From Hydromonas sp. (lineage in GTDB: Bacteria > Pseudomonadota > Gammaproteobacteria > Burkholderiales > Burkholderiaceae), in assembly GCA_017495165.1 (NCBI GenBank), contig JAFEII010000030.1, positions 1 to 64,000 of the forward strand: a stretch of 64,000 nucleotides of DNA. The letters are read 5' to 3'. Position numbers and translations under genes: made by a program. The notes under the pieces are model-generated. The model worked only from the letters and a program-made list of their open reading frames with translations. It did no database searches and had not been told where the DNA came from. Shown here one piece after another: positions 47,227 through 52,906 of this stretch (positions are counted from its first letter, which is position 1; each line of letters opens with the position of its first letter).

Positions 47227-47468
47227 GTTCAAACGGGTTGCTTTGGTTTAAATGTAAGAATCAAACAGGGTGCGTTTGAGCGAATCTAAGTGATGCACAA
47301 CTTTCTGCGAGCCACCGTCATTCCCGCGTAGGCTGCAACCGCCCTGTAAATCAGATGCAGAAAATGTAAAAATGTAAAACCACACAGCCCTTATTTAATC
47401 TGGGCTTGAATGGCAGTAAACCACAATGTCGGCGCTCATTTTGCCGACTTTTTTCATGGAGCTTTCTC

Positions 47469-48398
47469 ATGTTAGACCTAAACCCCAATGAGTTGATTCA
47501 CGACGCAATCCAAGCGCTGCCCGAACTCAAACACGTCGATGCAAACCTCATTCAAGCCAATATCGCAGCGCTGCGCGACAAAATCATCGTGGTCAAATAC
47601 GGCGGCAACGCCATGGTAGATGATGTGTTGCAGCAACAATTTGCCTTTGATGTGGCGCTATTGCACGCCTTGGGCGTGCGCGTGGTCGTGGTGCATGGCG
47701 GCGGGCCACAAATTGACCGCATGCTCAAACGGGTTGGGTTAGAAGGCCAATTTATTCAAGGCATGCGCGTCACGGACGGCCAAACCATGGAAGTGGTCGA
47801 AGCAGTTTTGGCGGGCAATGTGCAAGGCCAAGTTGTTGGGCTGATAAACCATGCGGGCAAACCGTATGGCGTGCGCGCTGTCGGTTTGAGCGGGATTGAC
47901 GGCGGCATGATTGCGGTCAAAAAATTGGGTTTGGCTGATTTAAAAGACCCAAACACCGTGCATGACATTGGCCAAGTGGGTGACGTGGTTGGTGTGGACA
48001 CAACGGCGCTACACGCGCTGCTGGGCGCAGATTTTTTGCCCGTGGTTTCACCGATTGCGAACGACGCACACAATGTGACCCACAACATCAACGCAGACGT
48101 GGTGGCAAGCGAGCTTGCGTGCGGCTTAAACGCCGAAAAATTGCTTTTACTCACCAATATTAAAGGCGTGCTCAACAGCCAAAACGAGCTGATAGAAGCG
48201 CTCAACCCGCAGCGGATTGACGCATTGATTCAAGACGGCACGCTGTACGGCGGCATGCTGCCCAAAATCGCCTCCGCGCTGGATGCCGCCAAGCGCGGCG
48301 TGGGCGCGGTGCATATTGCCGACGGGCGCGTGGCGCACGGTTTGTTGCTCGCGCTACTGGGCGGCGCGGCGGTGGGCACTGTGATTACGGCGGTTTGA
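47469..48398 (+). CDS. argB: acetylglutamate kinase
   Basis: Phosphorylates N-acetylglutamate, second step of arginine synthesis. 309 residues from the ATG at 47469, which has GGAG 7 nt upstream. Motifs are VVKYGGNAMVD, VVVVHGGGPQI, NADVVASELA and the LLLLTNIKGVL block. Single gene; its product feeds the arginine that a decarboxylase elsewhere could convert to the agmatine used by speB. Confidence 0.96.
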   Translation: MLDLNPNELIHDAIQALPELKHVDANLIQANIAALRDKIIVVKYGGNAMVDDVLQQQFAFDVALLHALGVRVVVVHGGGPQIDRMLKRVGLEGQFIQGMRVTDGQTMEVVEAVLAGNVQGQVVGLINHAGKPYGVRAVGLSGIDGGMIAVKKLGLADLKDPNTVHDIGQVGDVVGVDTTALHALLGADFLPVVSPIANDAHNVTHNINADVVASELACGLNAEKLLLLTNIKGVLNSQNELIEALNPQRIDALIQDGTLYGGMLPKIASALDAAKRGVGAVHIADGRVAHGLLLALLGGAAVGTVITAV

Positions 48399-48480: not shown

Positions 48481-51141
48481 ATGACGGACGAAACACGATG
48501 GGACGAGGCAAATAAGCTTTGGGATGCGTTTTTAAATAAATTCCCCGCAGAAAAAATTGAATCGATGACGCTGGCGGAATACACTGCTTTCACCGCAGAA
48601 AGCGATGCAGGCTCATTCACCTATTGGTTGGAGCATAGGTTGATGGACTTGGGCAGTATTCGTGGTGGGAGTAGTTTGAAATTTGGCGTTTGGCGAACGG
48701 ACGAAAAAAGCAAACTGACCAATACCAAAAATGATGGGGGCTATGCATGGCACACCAAGTACGGGGCCAGTAGCCCCCAAGAAGCTTTTGAGACGATCAA
48801 GCAACGCATCAAAGCGACGATAGAGGCTGTGCAGCGTGCTGATTTAAGTGCGATCGAGTCAATTGGTTTGCCCGACAGCTTGAAATGGAAAGTTGCTTTT
48901 ATGTACCAAGACCGAGCGCAACCTTGCGTGCTTAACGTTTTTACGCCCGATGCTTTGCGTTTGTATTTAGGGACGTTTGATAAAAAGAGCAGTGTGGCGG
49001 ATCTGCAAAAAGAAGTCATGGCGAGGCGTGAGAATAAAGCGCTTTTTGCTTTTGGGCGTGAGGTTTGGGGCGTTTGGTCGGAGGATGTGATGCGCCACTT
49101 CCAAGTTAAACCAAAAATCAATAAAGATTTTGATCCTATTTCTAAAACTTGGGATGAAAATAAAGCAGCATTCTTTACTCATGTGGTGAGTGCGTTCAAT
49201 CAATGCGGGTTTGATTGGTATTTTATAAGGCCTAAAAAAAGCACTCCCTATACTTTGCGTGTCGCTCGTAAAAAGCCAAAAAAAGAAAAGGATAAAAAAA
49301 TTGCCCCCAAAGCGACTGGTGTTTTAGGTTTTTTTGATTTTCAAAATTGTAAATTTTTATCCGATGGTGTTGCTTTTGGAACAGAAGATTTAGATGGTTT
49401 TAATGGTTGGTTTGAAGGGGCTTTTGCAGATGAAAAAGGAAAAGAAATTGACGCCAACACTGTGGGCAATTGGCCAGACGCCTATGACGAAGCCGAAGAA
49501 GAACCAGACGATGAGGGCGAAACAAATGCCGCGCATGAGGAGGCCACACATATGAAAACAGAGATACCGCTAAACCAAATTTTATACGGCCCACCAGGCA
49601 CGGGTAAAACTTACCACACCATTGATAAAGCACTGGAAATTTTTGGGGAACGCAACTCTGTTTCTGATTACTCGAGTGCAGAGGAAGCTAGAAGAGCGAA
49701 CAAAAAACTTTTTGATGAACGCGTGAGCAACGGCGACATTCAATTTGTCACCTTTCACCAAAGTTTCAGCTACGAGGATTTTGTCGAGGGCTTAACTGCG
49801 CAAGTGAATGAGCAAACGCAACAAATTCGCTATGAAGTCAGTGATGGCGTGTTTAAACGCATGTGTGAAAGCGCGGCGGTTAAAATTGAGGGGGGCGAGG
49901 TAGATTTTTCTCATCTAAAAGACCAGAGGGTATGGAAAATGTCGTTGGGTGCAGCTAATGAAGGCACTGAGGTGTACGACGCTTGCTTGAAATCCAACCG
50001 CATACTTTTGGGTTGGGGCGGTGATATTGATTTTTCACAGTGTAAAAATCGCAACGATATTAAAAGCCAATACCAACAAAGTGAGGAGCACCTTGCTGAC
50101 AACAGCTATGCGATTACGGCCGTTAATGCCTTTCTCTTAAAAGTTAAAAAAGACGACTTGATTGTTGTGAGTGACGGCAATCGCAAATTTAGAGCCATTG
50201 CACGGGTGACTGGTGACTATGAGTGCCTATCCGAGGGGGTTTGTGAGTATTACTTTCAATCACGAGCCGTCGAGTGGCTGCGCGAGTACAAACCATCTTT
50301 GCCTCGTGATCGCTTAATGGACGTGGACTTTAGTCAAATGACCATTTATGAACCCAGCGCAATCGACCGTAAAAAATTAGAGGGTTTGTTGTCTAAGCAG
50401 ACAAGTAAAAGTGAGCGCAGCCCTAAAGTATTGATTATTGACGAAATCAACCGTGGCAATATTTCCAAAATTTTTGGTGAGCTGATTACCTTGATTGAAC
50501 CATCGAAGCGCCAAGGAGCTGATGAGGCGCTTTCGGTGACTTTGCCTTACTCCAAGACCTCATTTGGCGTGCCCGATAATGTCTACATCATCGGCACGAT
50601 GAACAGCGCCGATCGCTCGCTTGCCTCGCTCGATTTGGCGTTGCGTCGTCGTTTTTATTTTATTGAAATGCCGCCTGATGCCAGCACTTTGGCGGGTATT
50701 GTGGTTGATGGCATTGAGGTACAACAAATGTTTGAGGCCATCAATCAGCGCATAGAGGTTTTACTGGGGCGTGATTATTGTATTGGCCATGCGTATTTTT
50801 TACCGTTAAAAGACGAGCCAAACTTGACTCACTTAGCGGCTATTTTTAAAAACAAAATCATCCCTTTGCTGCAAGAGTATTTTTTTGAAGACTGGGAACG
50901 CATTGCGCAGGTACTCAACAGCGACTCAAAAGAGGGCTTTGTTGTCAAAAAAACGTATCCAACAGACTTGTTTGGCTCGGATCCCCAGCCTGAAAATACG
51001 CAAAATAAAGAGGTTTGGCGCGTGAATCAGGAAGCCTTTGGTAAGGCTGAAAACTATCGCGCCATTTATGATGGCTTGACTTCTGAGCCTGCTGTGCAAC
51101 AGGGCGGAGATGGCAGTATGAGTGGGGCAGTGCCGTCGTGA
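48481..51141 (+). CDS. mcrB: McrB-type AAA+ GTPase with N-terminal sensor and PUA/EVE-like insert
   Basis: Motor subunit of a modification-dependent (type IV) restriction enzyme; 886 residues. Residues 1-200 are a domain containing LRLYLG and FGVWRTDEKSK. Residues 200-365 are of unknown fold, ending in an acidic linker. Walker A is GPPGTGKT (370-377), Walker B LIIDEINRGN (651-660), and the sensor is TMNSADRS (706-713), the McrB signature. Between Walker A and B, about residues 484-615 read as a PUA/EVE-like domain (VWKMSLG, ILLGWGG, a segment with FLLKVKKDDLIVV, then RAIARVTG). mcrC overlaps the stop by 4 nt. Confidence 0.9.
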   Translation: MTDETRWDEANKLWDAFLNKFPAEKIESMTLAEYTAFTAESDAGSFTYWLEHRLMDLGSIRGGSSLKFGVWRTDEKSKLTNTKNDGGYAWHTKYGASSPQEAFETIKQRIKATIEAVQRADLSAIESIGLPDSLKWKVAFMYQDRAQPCVLNVFTPDALRLYLGTFDKKSSVADLQKEVMARRENKALFAFGREVWGVWSEDVMRHFQVKPKINKDFDPISKTWDENKAAFFTHVVSAFNQCGFDWYFIRPKKSTPYTLRVARKKPKKEKDKKIAPKATGVLGFFDFQNCKFLSDGVAFGTEDLDGFNGWFEGAFADEKGKEIDANTVGNWPDAYDEAEEEPDDEGETNAAHEEATHMKTEIPLNQILYGPPGTGKTYHTIDKALEIFGERNSVSDYSSAEEARRANKKLFDERVSNGDIQFVTFHQSFSYEDFVEGLTAQVNEQTQQIRYEVSDGVFKRMCESAAVKIEGGEVDFSHLKDQRVWKMSLGAANEGTEVYDACLKSNRILLGWGGDIDFSQCKNRNDIKSQYQQSEEHLADNSYAITAVNAFLLKVKKDDLIVVSDGNRKFRAIARVTGDYECLSEGVCEYYFQSRAVEWLREYKPSLPRDRLMDVDFSQMTIYEPSAIDRKKLEGLLSKQTSKSERSPKVLIIDEINRGNISKIFGELITLIEPSKRQGADEALSVTLPYSKTSFGVPDNVYIIGTMNSADRSLASLDLALRRRFYFIEMPPDASTLAGIVVDGIEVQQMFEAINQRIEVLLGRDYCIGHAYFLPLKDEPNLTHLAAIFKNKIIPLLQEYFFEDWERIAQVLNSDSKEGFVVKKTYPTDLFGSDPQPENTQNKEVWRVNQEAFGKAENYRAIYDGLTSEPAVQQGGDGSMSGAVPS

Positions 51142-52439
51142 CCCATGTCATCACCCTTTGCGAATACGGATCATTGACCACTGCGGCTGTTGACCCCAGT
51201 TTTGAGCAACATACGGTGACGCCAAGCGCGTTTAATTTTTTGTGTGACTTTATGTCCAAGCACAAAAAATCAGGCGCGTCGTTGTTGCATTTAGAGAGCC
51301 ATGTTGCACTGCGTTTGGACAGTTATGTGGGCATCATCGAAACGCCGTGCGGTACAACGCTGGAAATATTGCCCAAGCATGTGAAAAAATTTGTAGAAGC
51401 ACCTGAGGAAAATATACTGCGAGCACGCAAGGTGTTGTTTCAAATGCTTGCAGCGGTTTTGGATTTGCCTAAGCCACGAGACTCGACCGTCAGTCACATT
51501 GAGCTGGCTAAAATGCCCTTGCATGAGTGGGTCATGGCGCAATTTTTAGCGACACTGGATGCACTCATCAAGCACGGCGTGCGCCATGATTATCAAAACA
51601 TTGAGGCCGAAGAGCGTTTTTTGCGCGGGCAGTTGGATGTGTCCAAGCAATTACGCCAGCCCATCGGGCGGCAGCATTTCTTTCAAATCAGGCACGATAT
51701 TTACTCTGCGAATCGACCCGAAAATCGTTTGCTGCAATCGGCATTGCATAAGGTTGCTAAGCACACCAAGCAGCACCAGCGTTTGAGCCAAGAACTGTTA
51801 CATCGATTTATCGGCATCCCTCAGTCAAGCAACCACAAGCGAGACTTTGGCCAATGGCAAGACACGCGTTTGATGGCGCACTATAAAAGCATTAAACCGT
51901 GGTGCGAATTGATCTTGGGCGAGCGCATGCCGTGGGCGGTTCATGGTCTGACGCAAGGCATGAGCTACCTATTTCCTATGGAAACGCTGTTTGAAAAATA
52001 CGTCGAAGTTAGTCTGCGCAAACAATTGCCCGTAGGTTGGCGTTTGACGGCGCAAGCAAACTCAAAATATTTGTGTTCTCACAAGAATGAAGGTATTTTT
52101 GCTCTCAGACCCGACTTTGTGTTGACGGATGGAAAGACCAAATATGTTTTGGATGCGAAGTGGAAGTTGCTCGATACATGCGAAAGCATTGAAACAAGCA
52201 AGTACGGCATCAGCCAAAGCGATTTTTATCAAATGTTTGCGTATGGGCACAAGTATTTGAGTGGTCACGGTGATTTGGTGATGATATATCCGAAGTGCGA
52301 AGGCTTTGAGCAGGCGATTGAGCAGCCGTTTTGTTTTTCGGAGGGTTTGAAATTGTGGGTTGTGCCTTGTGATTTGGAAGAGGCATCCGTGATTTGGCCT
52401 GAAGGCTTGGTGATGGGTTTTGTGGCTGGTGTAAATTAA
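51138..52439 (+). CDS. mcrC: McrC-type PD-(D/E)xK nuclease subunit
   Basis: Nuclease partner of McrB; 433 residues, starting with a GTG inside the mcrB stop (GTGA). An N-terminal beta-rich McrB-contact region is followed by a helical middle (SANRPENRLLQSAL). The C-terminal catalytic core has RPDFVLTDGKTKYVLDAKWK: Asp326, Asp339 and Lys341 form the PD-(D/E)xK site. All catalytic residues are present, so the pair looks active. The HIT gene follows 11 nt later but is probably unrelated. Confidence 0.93.
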   Translation: MTHVITLCEYGSLTTAAVDPSFEQHTVTPSAFNFLCDFMSKHKKSGASLLHLESHVALRLDSYVGIIETPCGTTLEILPKHVKKFVEAPEENILRARKVLFQMLAAVLDLPKPRDSTVSHIELAKMPLHEWVMAQFLATLDALIKHGVRHDYQNIEAEERFLRGQLDVSKQLRQPIGRQHFFQIRHDIYSANRPENRLLQSALHKVAKHTKQHQRLSQELLHRFIGIPQSSNHKRDFGQWQDTRLMAHYKSIKPWCELILGERMPWAVHGLTQGMSYLFPMETLFEKYVEVSLRKQLPVGWRLTAQANSKYLCSHKNEGIFALRPDFVLTDGKTKYVLDAKWKLLDTCESIETSKYGISQSDFYQMFAYGHKYLSGHGDLVMIYPKCEGFEQAIEQPFCFSEGLKLWVVPCDLEEASVIWPEGLVMGFVAGVN

Positions 52440-52450
52440 AGGAGAAAAAA

Positions 52451-52906
52451 ATGAATATGAATCACGATTATTTGCACCAAGCCGATTGTGCGTTGTGCAA
52501 TCAAGTGGGTGGCGAGCTGGTTTGGCAGAACGATGTGTTGCGGGTGATTATGGTGGATGAGCCGCATTTTGTGGGGTTTGTGCGGGTGGTTTGGCAGGCG
52601 CATGTGTCGGAAATGACCGATTTGCCTGTGGCGCAGCGCAGTTTGTTGATGAAGACGGTGTGTTTGGTGGAGGACGTGATGCGGCGGGTGTTGCGCCCGA
52701 CCAAGGTGAATTTGGCCAGTTTGGGCAATATGACGCCGCATTTGCATTGGCATGTGATTCCGCGTTTTGAGACGGATGTAAATTTTCCCAATCCTGTTTG
52801 GGCAATCACGCCTGAGCAGGCGGCGCAAACGCCTGCGCCTGTGGTCACGCCTGAGCAATATGCGGCGTTTGTGGCGGCGCTTAAAGTTGCGCTGTGGGAT
52901 GTTTGA
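52451..52906 (+). CDS. HIT family protein
   Basis: A 151-residue histidine-triad hydrolase-fold protein. The HIT motif is HLHWHVIPRF (near residues 97-106), with CALCNQVGG at the N-terminus. These enzymes hydrolyse nucleotide phosphoramidates or dinucleotides; the substrate is not assignable. AAAGGAG precedes the ATG region, and it lies 11 nt after mcrC. Confidence 0.88.
   Translation: MNMNHDYLHQADCALCNQVGGELVWQNDVLRVIMVDEPHFVGFVRVVWQAHVSEMTDLPVAQRSLLMKTVCLVEDVMRRVLRPTKVNLASLGNMTPHLHWHVIPRFETDVNFPNPVWAITPEQAAQTPAPVVTPEQYAAFVAALKVALWDV

What the first reader, a model, noticed from the sequence alone, without database searches (positions are those of the whole stretch)
48481..51141. McrB with a PUA/EVE-like domain inserted inside its AAA+ core
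Seen: 273 residues separate Walker A (370-377) from Walker B (651-660), far more than in a plain McrB, and about 484-615 has a beta-rich, PUA/EVE-like pattern. Known: EVE/PUA-like domains bind modified bases or RNA, and EVE-McrB fusions exist. Inference: the reader domain sits in the motor itself rather than only at the N-terminus, so base recognition may gate GTP hydrolysis directly.
Basis: partly seen in the sequence, partly recalled or inferred. Interest (0 to 1): 0.6.

Follow-up and report, generated by a model that had tools for sequence, protein, structure and literature searches.

The report
Base-reader domain inside McrB motor
This is a McrBC-type restriction system, which cuts chemically marked foreign DNA, whose motor protein carries a likely mark-sensing (EVE/YTH-like) domain looped out from the middle of the motor; the architecture is real but common, and has been reported in general terms before.

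Summary
Window 48481-51141 (+) encodes an 886-aa McrB, coupled to McrC (51138-52439). Walker A (370-377) and Walker B (650-657) lie 272 residues apart, against 64-107 in census McrBs without a core insert. The extra length is one domain, residues ~468-637, between helix 2 and strand 3 (Walker B) of the AAA+ core. AlphaFold2 folds it at pLDDT 89. PDB matches are YTH and EVE domains: YTHDF2 Z 11.0, archaeal EVE Z 10.4, EVE-HNH restriction enzyme VcaM4I Z 9.4. It has no Pfam EVE hit, so 'EVE/YTH-superfamily' is safer than 'EVE family'.

The architecture is common. In a census anchored on McrC, 18 of 49 McrBs carry this insert; seven carry other inserts at the same place, three carry an insert at another core site, and four carry the same domain N-terminally. 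A core tree implies repeated swapping. Bell et al. 2024 already reported that McrB GTPase domains often contain insertions likely encoding specificity domains. The system is absent from five congeneric genomes; in four, argB lies directly beside the downstream HIT gene.

Modified-base reading is likely but inferred. Direct gating of GTP hydrolysis is untested. Verdict: new member of a known kind, modest interest.

The parts
48481..51141 (+). mcrB-like gene, 886 aa
   Evidence: ORF; AAA_5 Pfam E 5.6e-14; PDB phmmer TgMcrB E 6e-55; full-length model matches TgMcrB 6ut5 Z 24.9 and EcMcrB 6ut6 Z 19.5
48487..49038 (+). N-terminal domain, residues 3-186, like the N-terminal half of PD-T4-1
   Evidence: PADLOC PD-T4-1 E 1.2e-19 over profile positions 22-195 of 383; 10 of 10 homologues match; no Pfam hit
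49093..49500 (+). second N-terminal region, residues ~205-340, shared with other McrBs that lack the first domain; low model confidence
   Evidence: BLAST segment 205-465 to L085; pLDDT under 50 for most of 206-358
49588..49611 (+). Walker A GPPGTGKT, residues 370-377
   Evidence: sequence; nearly invariant in 48 homologues
49786..49845 (+). helix-2 beta-hairpin insert, residues 436-455, typical of McrB
   Evidence: strands 436-442 and 449-455 in the model
49882..50391 (+). EVE/YTH-superfamily domain inserted between helix 2 and strand 3, residues ~468-637
50428..50451 (+). Walker B VLIIDEIN, residues 650-657
   Evidence: sequence; D654, E655, N657 invariant in 48 homologues
50602..50613 (+). 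McrB signature NxxD (N708-D711)
   Evidence: invariant N708 and D711 in 48 homologues
51138..52439 (+). mcrC, 433 aa, 4-base overlap with mcrB; D...DAK nuclease motif present
   Evidence: PF10117 McrBC E 2.1e-96; sequence LRPDFVLTDGKTKYVLDAKWK
47406..48398 (+). upstream flank, argB (named from its sequence); beside the HIT gene in congeners that lack mcrBC
52451..52906 (+). downstream flank, HIT-family gene (named from its sequence)

Best explanation
[quoted passage not shown] McrB has a complete GTPase AAA+ core with its helix-2 hairpin and NxxD motif. A YTH/EVE-superfamily reader domain is looped out of that core between helix 2 and the Walker B strand, and an unrelated PD-T4-1-like domain sits at the N-terminus. 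Inferred mechanism: six McrB subunits form a ring bound by McrC. The six inserted domains hang from the end of helix 2 and flip a modified base of invading DNA into an aromatic pocket (candidates W512, Y580, Y591). Capture loads the complex on foreign DNA; GTP hydrolysis, stimulated by McrC, drives translocation, and McrC cuts. Because the domain is attached by two linkers next to the helix-2 insert (which contacts McrC in solved structures) and to the Walker B strand, binding could influence hydrolysis or McrC engagement directly. That last step is a hypothesis. Shown here: the domain, its place, its predicted fold, its conservation and the swapping. Inferred: base binding, restriction activity, gating.
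For: Insert model pLDDT 89.4; YTHDF2 Z 11.0 over 131 residues, EVE 1wmm and 2p5d Z 10.4, EVE-HNH endonuclease VcaM4I Z 9.4, Foldseek E 1e-5. Full-length model keeps the McrB AAA+ fold around it. Aromatic at position 485 in 68/68, 512 in 66/68, Y580 67/68, Y591 67/68, W599 68/68. All 68 inserts match the N-terminal part of PADLOC PDC-S02; the two PDC-S02-like genes read here join this domain to a C-terminal part that reads as an Mrr-type nuclease (named from its sequence). The same domain is found N-terminally in 4 McrBs, where reader domains usually lie. L044, L042 and L074 have little or nothing before Walker A, so there the insert is the main candidate reader. McrC is adjacent. Gain by transfer: no McrB match in 5 congeners, argB and HIT matches 54-185 bp apart in 4 of them, lower GC.
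Against: No sequence profile puts the insert in Pfam EVE: the query scores nothing and 9 of 68 homologues score at best E 0.009; profile comparison with THYN1-like EVE proteins gave probability 5%. The pocket assignment rests on conservation and topology, not on a superposition that I could inspect. Nothing tested binding, GTPase effect or phage restriction. A second candidate reader (PD-T4-1-like) lies at the N-terminus.
Confidence: 0.75

Rival explanations
1. The inserted domain is a docking or regulatory module (for McrC, for ring assembly or for another protein), and recognition of DNA is done by the N-terminal PD-T4-1-like domain.
For: The N-terminal domain is conserved in 10 homologues and resembles a known anti-phage protein. 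The insertion site lies beside the helix-2 hairpin, which holds the McrC finger tip in TgMcrB (PMC7680126). Unrelated domains occur at the same site.
Against: The presumed pocket aromatics are nearly invariant. The domain also occurs N-terminally in McrBs and in nuclease-fused PDC-S02-like proteins. Insert-bearing McrBs L042, L044 and L074 have no sizeable N-terminal domain.
Confidence: 0.15
2. The inserted domain binds modified RNA, as YTH domains do in eukaryotes, so that the system senses infection through RNA rather than DNA.
For: Best fold matches are m6A-RNA reader YTH domains. CoCoNuT McrBC relatives are predicted to target RNA (PMC11090510).
Against: The signature motif is NxxD, not the NxD of the CoCoNuT branch (PMC11090510), and no RNA-related partner gene was seen beside it. 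The YTH domain of TgMcrB binds 6mA DNA (PMC7897488 and PMC7680126). McrC keeps a PD-(D/E)xK-type motif.
Confidence: 0.07
3. The insert is ordinary AAA+ structure or disordered filler, so that the reader's claim is a false alarm.
For: Pfam finds nothing in it in this protein.
Against: High-confidence independent fold, matches to known domains, absence from many McrBs, and TgMcrB aligning around it.
Confidence: 0.01

Closest known systems
McrB homologues with insertions in the GTPase domain (Bell et al. 2024, eLife, PMC11090510)
   Same: The paper states that McrB GTPase domains frequently contain insertions likely encoding specificity domains; this protein is such a case.
   Different: The paragraph read names neither the domain nor the site. 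Here the site is helix 2 to strand 3, the domain is YTH/EVE-like, and it is swapped with unrelated domains.
Thermococcus gammatolerans McrB (YTH domain, 6ut5)
   Same: Same AAA+ core (Z 24.9) with a YTH-superfamily reader.
EVE-McrB fusions (Bell et al. 2020, PMC7641849)
   Same: Reader of the same superfamily joined to McrB.
   Different: Described there as fusions; no core insertion was found in the passages read, and the domain here falls below Pfam EVE detection.
VcaM4I EVE-HNH endonuclease (6yex, PMC7897488)
   Same: Same fold (Z 9.4) acting as sensor of 5mC/5hmC by base flipping.
   Different: Fused to an HNH nuclease, not to an AAA+ motor.
PADLOC PDC-S02 candidates
   Same: N-terminal part is homologous to the insert (68 of 68 inserts).
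   Different: The members read here carry a nuclease-like half instead of McrB.
PD-T4-1 (Vassallo et al. 2022, PMC9519451)
   Same: N-terminal 22-195 resembles residues 3-186 here.
   Different: Only half of the profile matches; the rest of PD-T4-1 is not found here.

Membership tests
[quoted passage not shown]
   370-377 and 650-657
McrB (AAA+ GTPase of type IV restriction) | Signature NxxD motif | tested here: met
   N708-S-A-D711, both invariant in 48 homologues
[quoted passage not shown]
   strands 436-442 and 449-455 before the helix 457-466
McrB (AAA+ GTPase of type IV restriction) | Fold of solved McrB | tested here: met
   6ut5 Z 24.9, 6ut6 Z 19.5
McrB (AAA+ GTPase of type IV restriction) | McrC partner in the same operon | tested here: met
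   PF10117 E 2.1e-96, 4-base overlap
McrB (AAA+ GTPase of type IV restriction) | GTP specificity and modification-dependent cleavage | not testable with these tools
   needs purified protein
PUA superfamily, EVE/YTH-like fold | Fold of EVE/YTH domains | tested here: met
   37 Foldseek matches at E <= 0.001, all YTH, EVE-type or the EVE-HNH enzyme VcaM4I; VIA-align Z 9-11
PUA superfamily, EVE/YTH-like fold | Aromatic base pocket | tested here: inconclusive
   W512, Y580 and Y591 nearly invariant as aromatics; geometry not inspected
Pfam EVE family PF01878 | Score over the curated cut-off | tested here: not met
   query no hit; best of 68 homologues E 0.0093
CoCoNuT branch of McrBC | NxD motif | tested here: not met
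   NxxD here (definition from PMC11090510)
PD-T4-1 | Match over the whole profile | tested here: not met
   only positions 22-195 of 383

The most novel reading that the evidence does not exclude
The helix 2 to Walker B junction of McrB is a dedicated cassette site where different sensor domains are exchanged inside the motor, and sensor binding at that site acts allosterically on McrC engagement or GTP hydrolysis rather than just tethering DNA.
Probability: 0.3. Interest if true: 0.65.

Novelty: new member of a known kind. Interest (0 to 1): 0.33.

Why it matters
Readers of modified DNA are normally discussed as N-terminal attachments of McrB. If sensor binding at this site controls the motor, McrB would be a swappable-sensor machine in which recognition and GTP hydrolysis can be separated by mutation. 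As it stands, the finding is a clear example of a published but little described phenomenon.

Tried and rejected
Sequence searches for the insert in the PDB with profiles A1 and A5 gave only chance hits. Profile-profile comparison with a THYN1-like EVE alignment was uninformative (that alignment was too uniform, Neff 1.7). EVE hits in 730-746-aa frames of family members turned out not to be McrB; no McrB Walker motifs were found in them. ASCH was searched only for contrast and used no further. PDB search with the N-terminal profile gave nothing. Phage records hold no relative of the insert. Promoter and terminator scans were at chance level. The idea that the insert is AAA+ structure or filler was rejected. 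The idea that this architecture is unique to this genome was rejected.

Full report
What is there. The frame 48481-51141 (+) is a real 886-aa gene. It is followed, with a 4-base overlap, by a 433-aa McrC (51138-52439; PF10117 E 2.1e-96) whose sequence holds the D...DAK motif of PD-(D/E)xK nucleases. The product is McrB by sequence (TgMcrB E 6e-55, EcMcrB E 2e-33), by motif (Walker A 370-377, Walker B 650-657, NxxD 708-711) and by predicted fold (TgMcrB 6ut5 Z 24.9, EcMcrB 6ut6 Z 19.5).

The spacing. Walker A and Walker B lie 272 residues apart. To see whether that is unusual I searched for McrC (PF10117) in Pseudomonadota genomes without reference to McrB, fetched the DNA upstream, and measured the spacing in the 49 McrB frames that carry both motifs. 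Another 19 loci gave no McrB by this motif test and are left out. From the FHQS motif on strand 2 to Walker B, McrBs without an insert have 42-65 residues (one 78). Those that match a profile of the present insert have 220-243, or 334-396 where further sequence follows.

The insert. Eighty relatives were fetched from bacterial genomes (189 were found). After removal of duplicates, the query and 75 others (one of them from the family search) were aligned; in all but three the region between positions 466 and 650 is 181-206 residues long. The peptide patterns included stretches of the insert, so that set is biased; the McrC-anchored census is not. The insert alone (residues 462-652, 68 sequences) folds at mean pLDDT 89.4. 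The PDB matches are YTH domains (4wqn YTHDF2 Z 11.0, rmsd 3.1, 131 residues), archaeal EVE proteins (1wmm, 2p5d, Z 10.4) and the EVE-HNH restriction enzyme VcaM4I (6yex, Z 9.4). In the full-length model it lies between helix 2 (457-466, after the helix-2 hairpin 436-455) and strand 3 (649-654). Pfam EVE is matched only weakly by 9 of 68 homologues (best E 0.0093) and not by the query. The safe name is therefore EVE/YTH-superfamily domain, not Pfam EVE.

Why it is probably a base reader. Position 485 is aromatic in 68 of 68 inserts, 512 in 66, Y580 and Y591 are present in 67 and W599 in 68. By topology W512, Y580 and Y591 fall where YTH and EVE domains keep their base pocket; this is my reading of the alignment, not a superposition. 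VcaM4I flips 5mC or 5hmC into such a pocket (PMC7897488), and the YTH domain of TgMcrB binds 6mA DNA (PMC7680126, PMC7897488). All 68 inserts match the N-terminal part of PADLOC PDC-S02. Two such genes, in L094 and L095, join the same domain to a C-terminal part that I read from sequence as an Mrr-type nuclease. The same domain also stands N-terminally of Walker A in four census McrBs (L152, L158, L172, L202). In L042, L044 and L074 the match to the core begins near the start of the frame, so the insert is there the main candidate for recognition.

The site is a hot spot. In the census 18 of 49 McrBs carry this insert. Seven carry other sequence, 148-180 residues from FHQS to Walker B, at the same place. 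Three carry ~100 extra residues at another core site, between Walker A and FHQS. Of the alternative inserts, five (census L176, L177, L182 and fetched L050, L080) are clearly one family with no Pfam name. In L046/L143 and L083/L141 a second domain follows the EVE-like one. On a tree of 82 cores with the inserts left out, the 10 rows with an alternative insert need 10 changes, at least 5 of them forced by well-supported branches; the EVE-like insert needs 15, at least 6 forced. For example L050, with the other domain, lies in a 99%-supported group with L006, L013 and L184, which have the EVE-like one. This was a quick tree with some long branches, so the counts are approximate.

The rest of the protein. 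Residues 3-186 resemble the N-terminal half of the anti-phage protein PD-T4-1 (E 1e-19; 10 of 10 homologues), and no Pfam or PDB relative was found. Residues ~205-340 are shared with McrBs that lack that domain and were modelled poorly.

Origin. No McrB relative was found in the five other genomes of the genus. In four of them the matches to the argB and HIT genes that flank mcrBC here lie 54-185 bp apart (coordinates). GC falls to 43-45% in mcrB against 50-55% in most of the flanks. The system was most likely gained at this site. Relatives that cover at least 80% of the core with insert lie on 124 plasmid records; the best hits include Bacillota and are usually annotated as 'AAA family ATPase'.

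Known or new. Bell et al. 2024 (PMC11090510) write that McrB GTPase domains 'frequently contained insertions', likely encoding specificity domains. EVE-McrB is the commonest EVE architecture in defence (PMC7641849). The finding is a member of a known kind. What I did not find written in the passages read is the exact site, the identity of this domain at it, and the repeated exchange with unrelated domains.

Mechanism. In TgMcrBC the helix-2 inserts surround the tip of the McrC finger (PMC7680126), and McrC sets the NxxD motif for hydrolysis. A reader anchored at the end of helix 2 and the start of the Walker B strand could act on either. That is a reason to test gating, not evidence for it. 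A tethered reader that only loads the ring on modified DNA explains all present data equally well.

Noticed in passing
L050:6433-6771, L080:6313-6648, L176:3626-3961, L177:3563-3874, L182:3470-3802: A ~105-aa domain family without Pfam name occupies the same McrB core site in place of the EVE-like domain.
   Followed up: partly
L142, L146, L180: McrBs with ~100 extra residues between Walker A and the FHQS motif, a second insertion site in the core, possibly a winged-helix domain.
   Followed up: no
L046:7735-8169, L141:2967-3401, L143:3504-3938: McrBs with a further domain of unknown kind between the EVE-like insert and Walker B.
   Followed up: partly
L094 (minus strand), L095:1474-2517: 346-348-aa proteins joining the EVE-like domain to what reads as an Mrr-type nuclease half; the L095 gene lies near a frame that looks like part of a type I restriction subunit.
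   Followed up: partly
L138, L139, L140: 730-746-aa proteins with an EVE match over the Pfam cut-off; the rest looks like GNAT and PIN-like parts by eye, not McrB.
   Followed up: no
window 48481-49038: N-terminal domain shared with PD-T4-1 in ten McrBs; its function is unknown and it may be a second sensor.
   Followed up: partly
G076:C159:13129-15956: In this congener argB and HIT are ~1.5 kb apart, so something else may sit at the same place.
   Followed up: no
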